A stretch of 64,000 bases of DNA from positions 1 through 64,000 of the forward strand of contig SVEI01000001.1 of the NCBI GenBank assembly GCA_015057445.1, in the 5' to 3' direction. Source of the stretch: Lachnospiraceae bacterium (lineage in GTDB: Bacteria > Bacillota > Clostridia > Lachnospirales > Lachnospiraceae). Below are positions 1,938-6,771 of the stretch, in pieces. A model generated the notes under the pieces. It searched no databases, was not told where the DNA came from, and saw nothing but the letters and a program-made list of their open reading frames with translations. Position numbers and translations under genes: made by a program. Within the stretch, counting starts at the first letter, position 1, and every line of letters starts with the position of its first letter.

Positions 1938-2390
1938 ATGAAAATATTAGATTTGATATATTATTCCTATACGAATGAAGAAAAAAGAAAGGCTGATGAA
2001 GTAAATATAATGCTTCGTTCCTTTTGTGAGGCAAATCAACTTGATAAATTTCCGCATTATAGACAATTTCATACGGAAAAATCTAATAATCCATGTGGGA
2101 ATAGAGTGATTTTTATTGAAAATATGGGATATACTCTTGTAAGAGGTGACGGTGATAAAGGTTTAGGATGGATTATCGATGGAGTAGTTGTACATGAAAG
2201 AGAAGCTACAGTTTTTAGTAAGTATATTTTGAATAAAAGATTGAGCTTAAATTATACTGAGGAAGATTGGGATGAAATAGGGTTTATCAATGAACTAGAG
2301 ATATTTTTAGATTATATTTTAAAGGAATATTTTAATCTTTCATATACATCAAAGGATGTTTTGAAATATAGGGAGAAAACATGCAACTAA
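1938..2390 (+). CDS. Uncharacterised protein between fakA and recG
   Basis: I do not recognise this 150-residue protein. The ORF track starts it at a TTG (1902), but the ATG at 1938 is preferred because GGAG lies about nine bases before it. The sequence is soluble-looking, with no signal peptide or membrane segment; it has an aromatic-rich N-terminus (LDLIYYSY), a central GDGDKGLGWIIDGVVV stretch that looks like two beta strands joined by a turn, and an acidic, helical C-terminal third. It sits between genes that are normally close neighbours (yloV and recG), has a terminator and candidate promoter before it, and overlaps the recG start by 10 bases, so the two are probably co-transcribed and translationally coupled. 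It could be a lineage-specific insertion. Confidence 0.65.
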   Translation: MKILDLIYYSYTNEEKRKADEVNIMLRSFCEANQLDKFPHYRQFHTEKSNNPCGNRVIFIENMGYTLVRGDGDKGLGWIIDGVVVHEREATVFSKYILNKRLSLNYTEEDWDEIGFINELEIFLDYILKEYFNLSYTSKDVLKYREKTCN

Positions 2391-4399
2391 CCGACAACAT
2401 TACCACAATTAAAGGCATAGGTGAGAAGACTGCTGCCGCATTTGCTAAGCTTGGAGTTCATACTGTAGATGATTTGATTCATACCTATCCTAGGAATTAT
2501 CTGTCCTATGGAGAACCGGTTGACATTAAGGATACAGTAATAGGTGAGCGCCAGGCTATTTGTGCTGTTATTTCTTCCTATGTGGATACAAGAAAGGTTA
2601 GAGGTCTTACTTTGACTAATATTACAGCTAAGGACCACACTGGCAACATCAAAATTACATGGTTTAACTCACCATTTCTTAGGAATGTACTTCACAGAGG
2701 AGATACATACGTATTTGTTGGAACAGTAAAGGTCAAGAACAATATGCGTGTTATGGACATGCCTGAGTATTATAAGCTTGCACAGTACCAAGATATGAGA
2801 CAGGAGATGCAACCTGTATATCCACTAACATCTGGACTTTCTAACAAGACATTTCAAAAGGCTATAATTAGTACAAGAGAAATGATTTATAGTTTGGAGG
2901 ATTATCTTCCCGATGAGGTGAAATATGATTATAGTTTGATGGATATAAGTGAAGCTTATGAAAATATACATTTTCCAATGAATGAAGCTGTGCTGAAGAA
3001 TGCAATAAAAAGGCTTGCTTTTGATGAATTTTATAAGTTTTTATATGACATGGGCAAGCTTAAGGCTGAAAACATTCAGATTCCAAATAACCATAGGATA
3101 GTTCAAGGTAAGAATGTTGCTGAATTTGTAAATGATTTGTCCTTTAGTCTTACAAAGGGGCAACAACAGGCTATTGAGGATATATTAGCTGATATGGGCA
3201 GTGATAATGTTATGAATCGACTTGTTCAGGGAGATGTTGGTTCGGGTAAAACTGTTGTGGCTGAGGCTGCACTTTTTGCATGTATCAAAGAAGGATACCA
3301 GGGAGCTCTTATGGTACCCACTGAGGTTTTGGCAAAGCAACATTATGAAGAAATAAGTGAAATGTTCGACAAGTATGGCATAAAAACAGCTTGTTTGGTG
3401 GGTTCCACGCCTATGAAAGAAAAACGTCATATCTATGAAGGTTTAAAATCAGGAGATATAGATATAATAATTGGAACTCATGCCCTTATAGAGGATAAGG
3501 TGGAGTATAATAATCTTGGCCTGGTTGTAACAGATGAACAGCATCGATTTGGTGTAAATCAGAGAAAGAAGCTAACTGCAAAGGGTGATGCACCACATAC
3601 TCTTGTAATGAGTGCAACGCCTATTCCTAGAACTCTTGCTATTATAATGTATGCAGATCTTGATATATCAGTAATATCAGAGCTTCCAAGGGGCAGAAAG
3701 CCTATAAAGAACTGTGTTGTTGGAACTAATTACAGAAACACTGCATATAAGTTTATAGCTTCTCAGGTGGAAGAGGGGTCTCAGGTATATGTTATATGCC
3801 CTATGGTTGAGGAAAGTGAGACTATGGATCTTACTAATGTCACTGAATATACAGATACTATGAAAGCTAATCTTCCATCTAGTGTAAGGGTTGCTATGCT
3901 TCATGGAAAGATGAAGGCAGATGAGAAGAACTCTATAATGGACGACTATATTGCTGGTAATATAGATGTTTTGGTATCTACTACAGTTATAGAGGTAGGT
4001 ATTAACAATCCTAATTCTACTGTTATGATGGTTGAAAATGCCGAACGATTTGGATTGGCTCAGCTTCATCAGTTAAGAGGAAGAGTGGGACGTGGAAAGA
4101 AGCAGTCCTACTGTATTTTTATTAACGGAAAGGAAAGTAAGGAGTCTATGGACAGACTTAGGGTATTGGAGAATTCTAATGATGGATTCTTTATTGCCAG
4201 TGAGGATTTAAAACTTAGAGGTCCTGGTGATTTCTTTGGAATTAGACAAAGTGGTGAAATGCTGTTTATGTTGGCAGATATTTATAATCATGCTGATATG
4301 CTTAAAATAGCTCAAGAAATTCTAGCAAAGTACGGTGATAATTTAGGGCCAACTAAGTCTAAGATTATTACATCATTGAATGAAAATGCAGTATTATAG
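2381..4399 (+). CDS. recG: ATP-dependent DNA helicase RecG
   Basis: The 672-residue protein matches RecG in length and domain order: an N-terminal wedge/OB-fold domain (residues about 1-150, starting ITTIKGIGEKTA) and two helicase domains. Visible motifs are Walker A GDVGSGKT near residue 286, the DEQH box of motif II near residue 386, SATPIPRT motif III, and the C-terminal QLRGRVGRG motif VI followed by the RecG-type GPGDFFGIRQSG segment. RecG remodels stalled replication forks and branch-migrates Holliday junctions in the cytoplasm. The start overlaps the preceding unknown gene by 10 bases. No clear terminator follows; a 250-base gap leads to pnp. Confidence 0.97.
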   Translation: MQLTDNITTIKGIGEKTAAAFAKLGVHTVDDLIHTYPRNYLSYGEPVDIKDTVIGERQAICAVISSYVDTRKVRGLTLTNITAKDHTGNIKITWFNSPFLRNVLHRGDTYVFVGTVKVKNNMRVMDMPEYYKLAQYQDMRQEMQPVYPLTSGLSNKTFQKAIISTREMIYSLEDYLPDEVKYDYSLMDISEAYENIHFPMNEAVLKNAIKRLAFDEFYKFLYDMGKLKAENIQIPNNHRIVQGKNVAEFVNDLSFSLTKGQQQAIEDILADMGSDNVMNRLVQGDVGSGKTVVAEAALFACIKEGYQGALMVPTEVLAKQHYEEISEMFDKYGIKTACLVGSTPMKEKRHIYEGLKSGDIDIIIGTHALIEDKVEYNNLGLVVTDEQHRFGVNQRKKLTAKGDAPHTLVMSATPIPRTLAIIMYADLDISVISELPRGRKPIKNCVVGTNYRNTAYKFIASQVEEGSQVYVICPMVEESETMDLTNVTEYTDTMKANLPSSVRVAMLHGKMKADEKNSIMDDYIAGNIDVLVSTTVIEVGINNPNSTVMMVENAERFGLAQLHQLRGRVGRGKKQSYCIFINGKESKESMDRLRVLENSNDGFFIASEDLKLRGPGDFFGIRQSGEMLFMLADIYNHADMLKIAQEILAKYGDNLGPTKSKIITSLNENAVL

Positions 4400-4524: not shown

Positions 4525-4553
4525 TTGAAGAACAAGTGCTTTAATGATATAAT
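4525..4553 (+). promoter_or_regulatory. Candidate sigma-A promoter of pnp
   Basis: TTGAAG, a 17-base spacer and a perfect TATAAT. A start point near 4560 would give a leader of about 125 bases before the pnp ATG, beginning almost exactly at the base of the long leader stem. Confidence 0.7.
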
Positions 4554-4567
4554 GACATAGATTGCAT

Positions 4568-4653
4568 TGAGACCAAACCGAGACTTCTGAAAATGGTATT
4601 TTTTATCGAAAATTCAGCTTTAAAGTGCCATTTTCAGTTGTTTCGGCGTCTTA
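4568..4653 (+). promoter_or_regulatory. Long stem-loop in the pnp mRNA leader
   Basis: Read as RNA, three blocks pair in order: TGAGAC/GTCTTA (6 bp including G-U), CCGAGAC/GTTTCGG (7 bp including a G-U) and CTGAAAATGG/CCATTTTCAG (10 bp). The inner two blocks are separated by a symmetrical TT/TT internal loop and the terminal loop is about 31 bases. The stem ends 17 bases before the ribosome-binding site AAGGAG (4671). It is not followed by a T-run, so it is not a simple terminator. In E. coli, PNPase controls its own mRNA through a leader stem cut by RNase III; an analogous role here is inference. Confidence 0.65.
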
Positions 4654-4686
4654 ATGAAAAATAAATTTTTAAGGAGATATTGTATT

Positions 4687-6771
4687 ATGTACAAGAAGTT
4701 TGAGATGGAGCTTGCAGGCAGAACTCTTAGAGTTGATGTTGGCAGAGTTGCAAAGCAGGCTAATGGTGCAGCATTAATGCACTACGGTGACACAGTTGTT
4801 TTATCAACAGCTACAGCTTCTGAGAAGCCAAGAGAGGGTATTGATTTCTTCCCACTCTCAGTAGAGTATGAGGAGAAGCTATACGCAGTAGGTAAGATTC
4901 CTGGAGGCTTTAATAAGAGAGAGGGTAAGGCTAGTGAGAATGCTATCCTTACATCAAGAGTAATCGACCGTCCTATGAGACCACTTTTCCCTAAGGACTA
5001 TAGAAATGATGTTACTCTTAATAACATGGTTATGGCAGTTGACCCAGAGTGTTCACCAGAGCTTACTGCTATGCTTGGTTCAGCAATTGCTACTGCAATT
5101 TCTGATATTCCATTTGATGGACCATGTGCAACAACACAGGTTGGTATGATTAATGGTGAGTTTGTATTTAACCCTAATGCAGCTCAGAACCTTGTATCAG
5201 ACCTTAAGCTTACAGTTGCTTCAACTAGAGATAAGGTTATTATGATTGAGGCTGGTGCTAATGAGGTACCTGAGGCTAAGATGATTGAGGCAATTTATGC
5301 AGCTCATGAGTTGAATCAAAAGGTTATAGCTTTTATTGATGAGATAGTTGCAGAGTGTGGAAAGGCTAAGCATGAGTATACAAGCTGCGCTATTCCTGAT
5401 GAGCTTTTTGCAGCAATTAAAGAGATTGTTACTCCAGAGCAGATGGAGGTTGCAGTATTCACTGATGAGAAGCAGGTTAGAGAAGAAAATATTAGACAGA
5501 TTAAGGACAAGCTTGAGGAAGCCTTTGCTGATAAGGAGGATTGGTTAGCTGTTCTTGATGAGGCTGTTTACCAGTATCAGAAGAAGACAGTTCGTAAGAT
5601 GATTCTTAAGGATGGTAAGAGACCAGACGGCAGACAGATGACTCAGATTAGACCTCTTGCTGCTGAGACAGATATTATTCCTAGAGTTCATGGTTCAGCT
5701 ATGTTTACTAGAGGACAGACTCAGATTTGTAACGTAGTAACATTAGCTCCACTTTCAGAAGCACAGAAGTTAGATGGTCTTGATGAGCTTGTTACTAACA
5801 AGAGATATATGCACCACTATAACTTCCCATCATACTCAGTTGGAGAGACTAAGCCATCTAGAGGACCAGGAAGAAGAGAAATTGGTCATGGAGCCCTTGC
5901 TGAGAGAGCCCTTATACCAGTTCTTCCTTCAGAAGAGGAGTTCCCATATGCTATTCGTTCTGTATCAGAGACATTTGAGTCAAATGGTTCAACATCTATG
6001 GCTTCAACTTGTTCATCATGTATGGCGCTTATGGCTGCAGGTGTACCTATTAAGAAGATGGTTGCAGGTATCTCATGTGGTCTTGTTACTGGAGATACAG
6101 ATGATGATTACGTACTTCTTACAGATATTCAGGGACTTGAAGACTTCTTTGGAGATATGGACTTTAAGGTAACTGGTACTACTGAGGGTATTACAGCCAT
6201 TCAGATGGATATTAAAATTCATGGATTAACAAGACCTATTGTTGAAGGTGCTATTGCAAGATGTCGTGAGGCTAGAATGTTTATCATGGATACTTGTATG
6301 AAGCCGGCAATCGCTGAGCCAAGACCAAACGTTGGAGAGTTTGCTCCAAAGATTATCCAGACTGTAGTCGATCCTGAGAAGATAGGTGAGATTATTGGAC
6401 AGAGAGGTAAGACTATCAACTCAATTATTGAAGAAACTGGTGTTAAGATTGATATTGATGATGAGGGTAGAGTTTCAATCTGTGGCGTTGAGCAGGCAGG
6501 TATGGACAAGGCTCTAAAGATTATTCGTTCAATCGTTGATCCACTTGAGGTTGGTAAGACTTACGAGGGTAAGGTTGTTAGAATAATGAACTTTGGTGCA
6601 TTTGTAGAGCTTGCACCAAACAAGGACGGACTCATTCACATTTCAAAGCTTGCTCCAAATAGAGTTGAAAAGGTTGAGGATGTAGTAAATATCGGTGATG
6701 AAGTAAGAGTTAAAGTGCTTGAAATCGATAGAATGGGCAAGGTAAGCCTTAGCTTAAAGGACGCTGAGTAA
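4687..6771 (+). CDS. pnp: Polyribonucleotide nucleotidyltransferase (PNPase)
   Basis: PNPase degrades RNA 3'-to-5' by phosphorolysis. The sequence shows two RNase PH-like domains (first from about residue 5, second from about residue 305 at KRPDGRQMTQIRPL), the catalytic-region motif GDTDDDYVLLTDIQG near residue 470, then a KH domain (IGEIIGQRGKTINSI) and a C-terminal S1 domain (YEGKVVRIMNFGAFVEL). From the ATG at 4687 it is 694 residues, normal for the family. The ORF track's earlier ATG (4654) is rejected because AAGGAG lies ten bases before 4687 and the extra 11 residues are atypical. The usual partner rpsO is not upstream here; recG is. Codon use is of the highly expressed type. Confidence 0.97.
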   Translation: MYKKFEMELAGRTLRVDVGRVAKQANGAALMHYGDTVVLSTATASEKPREGIDFFPLSVEYEEKLYAVGKIPGGFNKREGKASENAILTSRVIDRPMRPLFPKDYRNDVTLNNMVMAVDPECSPELTAMLGSAIATAISDIPFDGPCATTQVGMINGEFVFNPNAAQNLVSDLKLTVASTRDKVIMIEAGANEVPEAKMIEAIYAAHELNQKVIAFIDEIVAECGKAKHEYTSCAIPDELFAAIKEIVTPEQMEVAVFTDEKQVREENIRQIKDKLEEAFADKEDWLAVLDEAVYQYQKKTVRKMILKDGKRPDGRQMTQIRPLAAETDIIPRVHGSAMFTRGQTQICNVVTLAPLSEAQKLDGLDELVTNKRYMHHYNFPSYSVGETKPSRGPGRREIGHGALAERALIPVLPSEEEFPYAIRSVSETFESNGSTSMASTCSSCMALMAAGVPIKKMVAGISCGLVTGDTDDDYVLLTDIQGLEDFFGDMDFKVTGTTEGITAIQMDIKIHGLTRPIVEGAIARCREARMFIMDTCMKPAIAEPRPNVGEFAPKIIQTVVDPEKIGEIIGQRGKTINSIIEETGVKIDIDDEGRVSICGVEQAGMDKALKIIRSIVDPLEVGKTYEGKVVRIMNFGAFVELAPNKDGLIHISKLAPNRVEKVEDVVNIGDEVRVKVLEIDRMGKVSLSLKDAE

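What the first reader, a model, noticed from the sequence alone, without database searches (positions are those of the whole stretch)
4568..4653. Long, interrupted stem in the pnp leader: possible PNPase/RNase III autoregulatory site
Seen: a strong promoter (TTGAAG-17-TATAAT) would start the mRNA about at the foot of a stem of three paired blocks (6, 7 and 10 bp) with a symmetrical TT/TT internal loop, a 31-base terminal loop and no T-run, ending just before the ribosome-binding site. Known: E. coli pnp is autoregulated through a leader stem processed by RNase III and then degraded by PNPase. Inference: a comparable but separately evolved control in this clostridial lineage. The absence of rpsO upstream makes pnp independently transcribed, which would favour its own control.
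Basis: partly seen in the sequence, partly recalled or inferred. Interest (0 to 1): 0.6.

Follow-up and report, generated by a model that had tools for sequence, protein, structure and literature searches.

The report
Transposon-like hairpin leader of pnp mRNA
The messenger RNA for the RNA-degrading enzyme PNPase begins, across most of the gut-bacterial family Lachnospiraceae, with a conserved long hairpin whose core matches the end of a mobile DNA element; it is probably a domesticated transposon remnant that now lets the cell adjust how much of the enzyme is made.

Summary
The stem is real and larger than described: 9, 7 and 16 bp (window 4565-4656), z about -6, starting about 4-6 nt after the predicted transcription start. 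It is conserved. All 28 same-genus pnp leaders with full upstream sequence have it, as do 73 of 88 other Lachnospiraceae genera inspected; 0 of 22 pnp genes from sister families do. All 30 top model hits lie directly before pnp. Rfam has no match. In a phylogeny-aware test on 69 sequences, 12 column pairs covary: 11 are base pairs of the stem and the twelfth is a central non-Watson-Crick mismatch (C-A, U-U, A-C, C-U). The core is also conserved as sequence: CCGAGAC-NN-CTGAAAA / TTTTCAG-NN-GTTTCGG.

Unexpectedly, the 5' core is identical (14/14) to the terminal inverted repeat of an IS1182-family insertion sequence and its miniature copies, which insert into hairpin loops; a full copy lies in another Lachnospiraceae genome. 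The leader is most likely a domesticated IS1182-type hairpin, gained once and lost several times.

Mechanism (inferred): a duplex at the mRNA 5' end, cut by RNase III and then attacked by PNPase, giving negative feedback as in E. coli. No cleavage data exist. Loss of rpsO is not the cause: many relatives have rpsO just upstream and still carry the leader.

The parts
4525..4553 (+). pnp promoter: -35 TTGAAG (4525-4530), 17-nt spacer, -10 TATAAT (4548-4553), extended TG
   Evidence: in all 28 same-genus leaders with full upstream the -10 end lies 25-27 nt before GAGAC
4559..4564 (+). predicted transcription start and first bases AGATTG, at the foot of the stem
   Evidence: inferred from the -10 position; GATTG is conserved in almost all same-genus leaders
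4565..4573 (+). outer stem, 5' arm CATTGAGAC (pairs with 4648-4656)
   Evidence: both-sided changes; observed score 7.5 vs 3.8 shuffled
4578..4584 (+). core 5' arm CCGAGAC, pairs with GTTTCGG; includes a nearly invariant G-U wobble
4585..4586 (+). 5' side of the central internal loop (UU here); the base next to CCGAGAC is the conserved covarying mismatch
   Evidence: columns 26/65
4587..4602 (+). inner stem, 5' arm CTGAAAATGGTATTTT; CTGAAAA matches the IS1182 terminal repeat
4603..4621 (+). distal loop, variable: 33-61 nt between the cores in most genera, up to about 207 nt
4622..4637 (+). inner stem, 3' arm AAAGTGCCATTTTCAG
4638..4639 (+). 3' side of the central internal loop (UU)
4640..4646 (+). 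core 3' arm GTTTCGG
4648..4656 (+). outer stem, 3' arm GTCTTAATG
4671..4676 (+). ribosome-binding site AAGGAG, left free by the stem
4687..6771 (+). pnp, polyribonucleotide nucleotidyltransferase, 694 aa
   Evidence: NF008805, 949.9 bits (cut-off 471)
2381..4399 (+). recG, upstream neighbour in place of rpsO
   Evidence: NF008168, 815.1 bits (cut-off 718)

Best explanation
This is a conserved cis-acting 5' leader hairpin of pnp in Lachnospiraceae. SHOWN: a long imperfect duplex at the predicted mRNA 5' end, conserved across the family and only before pnp, with covarying arms, a sequence-conserved core, one conserved non-Watson-Crick mismatch and a free ribosome-binding site. SHOWN: the core equals the terminal inverted repeat of IS1182-family elements that insert into hairpin loops. 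INFERRED: it descends from such an element (probably a miniature copy) that inserted into a hairpin between rpsO and pnp in the family's ancestor and was then domesticated. INFERRED: it works as an autoregulatory duplex. The stem protects the mRNA 5' end until RNase III cuts it near the central mismatch. PNPase then removes the short upstream strand, exposing the message to decay, so PNPase limits its own synthesis.
For: Stable fold, z -5.6 to -6.2. Same genus 28 of 28 with fixed promoter spacing. Sister families 0 of 22. Covariation 0/500 in shuffles and 93% pairing against 38-47% for slid controls. Phylogeny-aware test: 12 significant pairs, 11 in the stem plus the mismatch. Outer stem better than shuffles. 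No terminator. IS origin: multicopy GAGACYACTGAAAAA in 5 genomes, with a near-zero reversed control; IS1182 transposase; loop insertions with about 8-nt duplications; consensus arms 14/14 and 12/14 identical to the repeat; published stem-loop targeting by IS1272 of the IS1182 family (PMC5678879). One gain and several losses. RNase III gene present. Known precedent: RNase III cleavage of the E. coli pnp 5' UTR speeds decay (PMC5371410).
Against: No RNA data: transcript start, RNase III cleavage and PNPase feedback are all untested. Fifteen of 88 genera lack the element, so it is dispensable. Outside the window's genus the promoter at the foot is only moderately enriched (26 of 74 against 14 in control positions). 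A 5'-end stabiliser or another binding protein would leave much the same traces. The homology with IS1182 rests on about 14-16 bp per arm. Part of the alignment was gathered by a finder that required pairing in the core and first inner pairs, although six of the significant pairs and the mismatch lie outside that requirement.
Confidence: 0.58

Rival explanations
1. 5'-end stabiliser: the hairpin shields the transcript's first nucleotides from 5'-dependent ribonucleases and keeps pnp mRNA stable, with no feedback.
For: The stem starts about 4-6 nt after the predicted start, with spacing fixed in the genus; the outer stem is selected for pairing, not sequence.
Against: Does not explain the near-invariant core sequence, the nearly invariant G-U wobble or the covarying mismatch, nor why the element is found only at pnp.
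Confidence: 0.2
2. Binding site for another RNA-binding protein (PNPase itself as repressor, or another factor) that acts on translation or decay without RNase III cleavage.
For: Sequence-conserved core and a conserved non-canonical pair are typical of protein recognition; the ribosome-binding site lies nearby.
Against: The stem does not sequester the ribosome-binding site and the distance from core to start codon varies from about 28 to 140 nt or more.
Confidence: 0.15
3. Passive transposon relic or repeated independent insertions of a miniature IS1182 element, without function.
For: Core equals the IS1182 terminal repeat; such miniature elements are common in other Clostridia.
Against: Single position, covariation in all parts, a fixed mismatch and wobble absent from the perfect repeats, conservation across more than 70 genera and presence in the earliest-branching lineages.
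Confidence: 0.04
4. Attenuator or terminator between rpsO/recG and pnp.
For: It is a strong hairpin between genes.
Against: No T-run: 0 terminator-like sites in the window region, 3 of 74 leaders with TTTTT after the stem; no conserved competing structure seen.
Confidence: 0.03

Closest known systems
E. coli pnp leader (RNase III/PNPase autoregulation)
   Same: Long imperfect hairpin in the pnp 5' UTR, near the mRNA 5' end, no terminator, ribosome-binding site outside; between rpsO and pnp in many relatives. The E. coli leader folded here gives a comparable interrupted long stem.
   Different: No similarity of the core noted; feedback is unproven here; the Lachnospiraceae stem has a conserved sequence core, a conserved mismatch and an apparent IS1182 origin.
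Actino-pnp RNA motif (Rfam RF01688, Actinomycetales; Weinberg 2010, PMC2864571)
   Same: A conserved structured cis element before pnp found by comparative genomics.
   Different: No Rfam match in the window or in 17 related loci; different phylum.
IS1182-family terminal inverted repeats and their miniature copies (cf. IS1272, PMC5678879)
   Same: GAGACCACTGAAAA / TTTTCAGTNGTNTC arms, nested inside an outer hairpin as after insertion into a hairpin loop.
   Different: Vertically conserved at one locus, two fixed changes in the 3' arm (wobble and mismatch), no transposase, no target duplication established.

Membership tests
E. coli-type pnp autoregulatory leader | Long interrupted stem in the pnp 5' UTR near the transcript start | tested here: met
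   (start predicted, not mapped)
E. coli-type pnp autoregulatory leader | RNase III cleaves the stem | not testable with these tools
   only the presence of an RNase III gene was shown
E. coli-type pnp autoregulatory leader | PNPase level feeds back on pnp mRNA stability through the leader | not testable with these tools
   needs mutants and RNA measurements
E. coli-type pnp autoregulatory leader | Position between rpsO and pnp | tested here: inconclusive
   not in the window's genus (recG upstream) but in many relatives rpsO lies 60-300 nt upstream of the core
Actino-pnp (RF01688) | Match to the covariance model at gathering score | tested here: not met
   no match
IS1182-family element or miniature copy | Terminal inverted repeat GAGACYACTGAAAAA in both arms | tested here: met
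   consensus arms 14/14 and 12/14 identical over 14 positions; repeat defined from a complete IS in G119 with transposase NF033551, 307.9 bits, cut-off 270
IS1182-family element or miniature copy | Transposase gene or multicopy dispersal in the same genome | tested here: not met
   one locus per genome, always before pnp where fetched; hence at most a fossil or domesticated remnant
IS1182-family element or miniature copy | Insertion in a hairpin loop with duplication of about 8 nt | tested here: inconclusive
   outer stem present, but no direct repeat established at the pnp leader; seen clearly in L200-L202 and L344
Intrinsic terminator or attenuator | T-run after the stem | tested here: not met

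The most novel reading that the evidence does not exclude
A transposon end was domesticated in the ancestor of Lachnospiraceae as the autoregulatory RNase III/PNPase switch of pnp, and a covarying non-Watson-Crick pair in its centre, absent from the mobile element, was selected as the specificity determinant of cleavage or binding. It would be a convergent re-invention of the E. coli pnp switch from mobile DNA.
Probability: 0.4. Interest if true: 0.85.

Novelty: new variant of a known kind. Interest (0 to 1): 0.68.

Why it matters
It adds a structured RNA family, absent from Rfam 15, before a central RNA-decay gene in one of the main gut-bacterial families. It suggests that pnp control by a leader duplex arose independently in different phyla. 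It also gives a traceable case of a mobile hairpin becoming a conserved regulatory RNA, with the changes that set the domesticated form apart (one wobble, one mismatch) visible and testable.

Tried and rejected
(1) That loss of rpsO goes with the leader: at first the motif-negative genera seemed to be those with rpsO upstream, but the full table showed rpsO upstream of 54 motif-positive loci too. (2) rliD (Listeria antisense RNA, Rfam RF01494) matched below its cut-off, on the minus strand and overlapping the pnp coding start; probably a shadow of coding conservation. (3) Weak model hits in other families of the class are not before pnp; following them led to the IS1182 elements. (4) Antisense function: minus-strand hits come from the palindromic shape and score far lower (101 vs 47 bits). 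(5) Terminator: no T-run. (6) The phylogeny-aware test on the 22 same-genus sequences alone found no significant pair: too few changes, so the covariation claim rests on the family set. (7) The PNPase-leader paper Jarrige et al. 2001 was not held, so details of the E. coli mechanism beyond PMC5371410 are from general knowledge. (8) Literature searches found no report of this element, but the library lacks most subscription journals.

Full report
OBSERVATION. The finding concerns the leader of pnp (start 4687; NF008805, 949.9 bits) in a Lachnospiraceae genome (the nearest named records are Lachnospiraceae). The promoter TTGAAG-17-TATAAT is at 4525-4553. The RNA folds into one long interrupted hairpin, 4565-4656: 9 bp, a 4/1-nt linker, 7 bp, a UU/UU internal loop, 16 bp and a 19-nt loop; -40.5 kcal/mol, z -6.2, none of 200 shuffles as stable. 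There is no terminator, and AAGGAG at 4671-4676 is unpaired.

CONSERVATION. pnp upstream regions were taken from the genus. All 28 with full upstream sequence keep the stem, with -10 to core spacing of 25-27 nt, while the distal loop varies. A covariance model (R1) hit 131 of 250 family genomes, nearly all from different genera; all 30 fetched hits lie immediately before pnp. I then read the pnp upstream regions of 88 other genera, including 40 that the model had missed. 73 have the motif and 15 do not, and 25 of the 40 model-negatives carry it. Extrapolated, roughly four fifths of genera have it (inference). In 22 pnp loci of other families of the order there is none. On a PNPase tree the family is one clade, its earliest branches are motif-positive, and negatives are scattered (at least 10 changes forced), which fits one gain and repeated loss. 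Cultured carriers include Faecalimonas umbilicata, Robinsoniella peoriensis, [Clostridium] polysaccharolyticum, Murimonas intestini, Velocimicrobium porci and Anaeromicropila populeti.

STRUCTURE EVIDENCE. On 69 diverse sequences (alignment A2), 93.1% of cells pair against 38-47% when the partner is slid, and the covariation score is 0.425 against 0.146 shuffled, 0/500. I also ran an R-scape-like test with null alignments simulated along a tree: 12 column pairs are significant. Eleven are pairs of the stem. The twelfth, columns 26/65, is the central mismatch next to CCGAGAC/GTTTCGG. Over 101 leaders this position is C-A 39, U-U 36, A-C 9, C-U 7, U-C 3, U-G 3 and A-G 1; the only C-G cases (3) are leaders in which the mismatch has moved by one position. 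So the mismatch is maintained while its bases change, as expected of a selected non-canonical pair. Core and first inner pairs were used to find some sequences, so their pairing is partly by selection; six of the significant pairs and the mismatch were not used. The outer stem, with variable linkers, scores 7.5 against 3.8 for shuffled flanks. The core is also conserved as sequence, including a G-U wobble in 68 of 69. Rfam 15 has no match in the window or in 17 relatives.

AN UNEXPECTED RELATIVE. Weak model hits outside the family were not near pnp but showed the same core in dispersed hairpins. The 15-mer GAGACYACTGAAAAA is multicopy in five other Clostridia genomes (4-10 copies each), with almost no hits for the reversed control. 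Near one copy lies a transposase with DUF772 and DDE_Tnp_1_6 domains. In the Lachnospiraceae genome G119 a complete 1.7-kb element carries the repeat at both ends around an IS1182-family transposase (NF033551, 307.9 bits). Miniature copies in G557 and the G119 element sit in loops of hairpins with about 8-9 nt duplicated, and published work shows that IS1272 of the IS1182 family targets stem-loops (PMC5678879). The leader's consensus arms match this repeat at 14/14 and 12/14 positions; the two differences, both in the 3' arm, create the G-U wobble (73 of 73 carry T) and the mismatch. A hairpin inside an outer hairpin is what such an insertion leaves. I judge common descent likely (about 0.75) but not proven, since it rests on about 14-16 bp per arm.

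MECHANISM. The genome has RNase III. E. coli pnp is known to be cleaved by RNase III in a 5' UTR structure, which speeds its decay (PMC5371410), and its leader folds here into a comparable interrupted stem. A duplex at the mRNA 5' end, always before the gene for PNPase, with a free ribosome-binding site and a strongly constrained centre, is best explained as the same kind of feedback device: RNase III cuts, PNPase removes the upstream strand, and the message decays. That step is inference. A simple 5' stabiliser is the main rival, but it leaves the conserved core and mismatch unexplained.

COMPARISON AND VERDICT. It works like the E. coli leader by position and shape; membership in that mechanism cannot be tested here. 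It is not Actino-pnp (RF01688). It is not an active IS1182 element.

Noticed in passing
L199-L202 (genome G557), L344 (G119): Miniature IS1182-type elements and one full IS sit in the loops of hairpins, in G557 often terminator-like, with the loop (about 8-9 nt) duplicated on both sides.
   Followed up: partly
L152 (G649), L154 (G678): Perfect hairpins CAGACTACTGACAAA.../TTTGTCAGTAGTCTG in other class members resemble the same terminal repeat.
   Followed up: no
L062/L325 (genome G071): A leader-less relative keeps the promoter and the first transcribed bases (GATTGTA) but lacks the whole stem: a natural deletion.
   Followed up: no
L094, L084, L070, L026: Some leaders carry large insertions (about 70-170 extra nt) in the distal loop with the core intact, so the loop tolerates extra sequence.
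   Followed up: no
window 4584-4800, minus strand: Sub-threshold Rfam match to Listeria rliD, which overlaps the pnp coding start.
   Followed up: partly
window 4654: The mechanical ORF call places the pnp start at 4654; the ribosome-binding site and relatives place it at 4687.
   Followed up: yes
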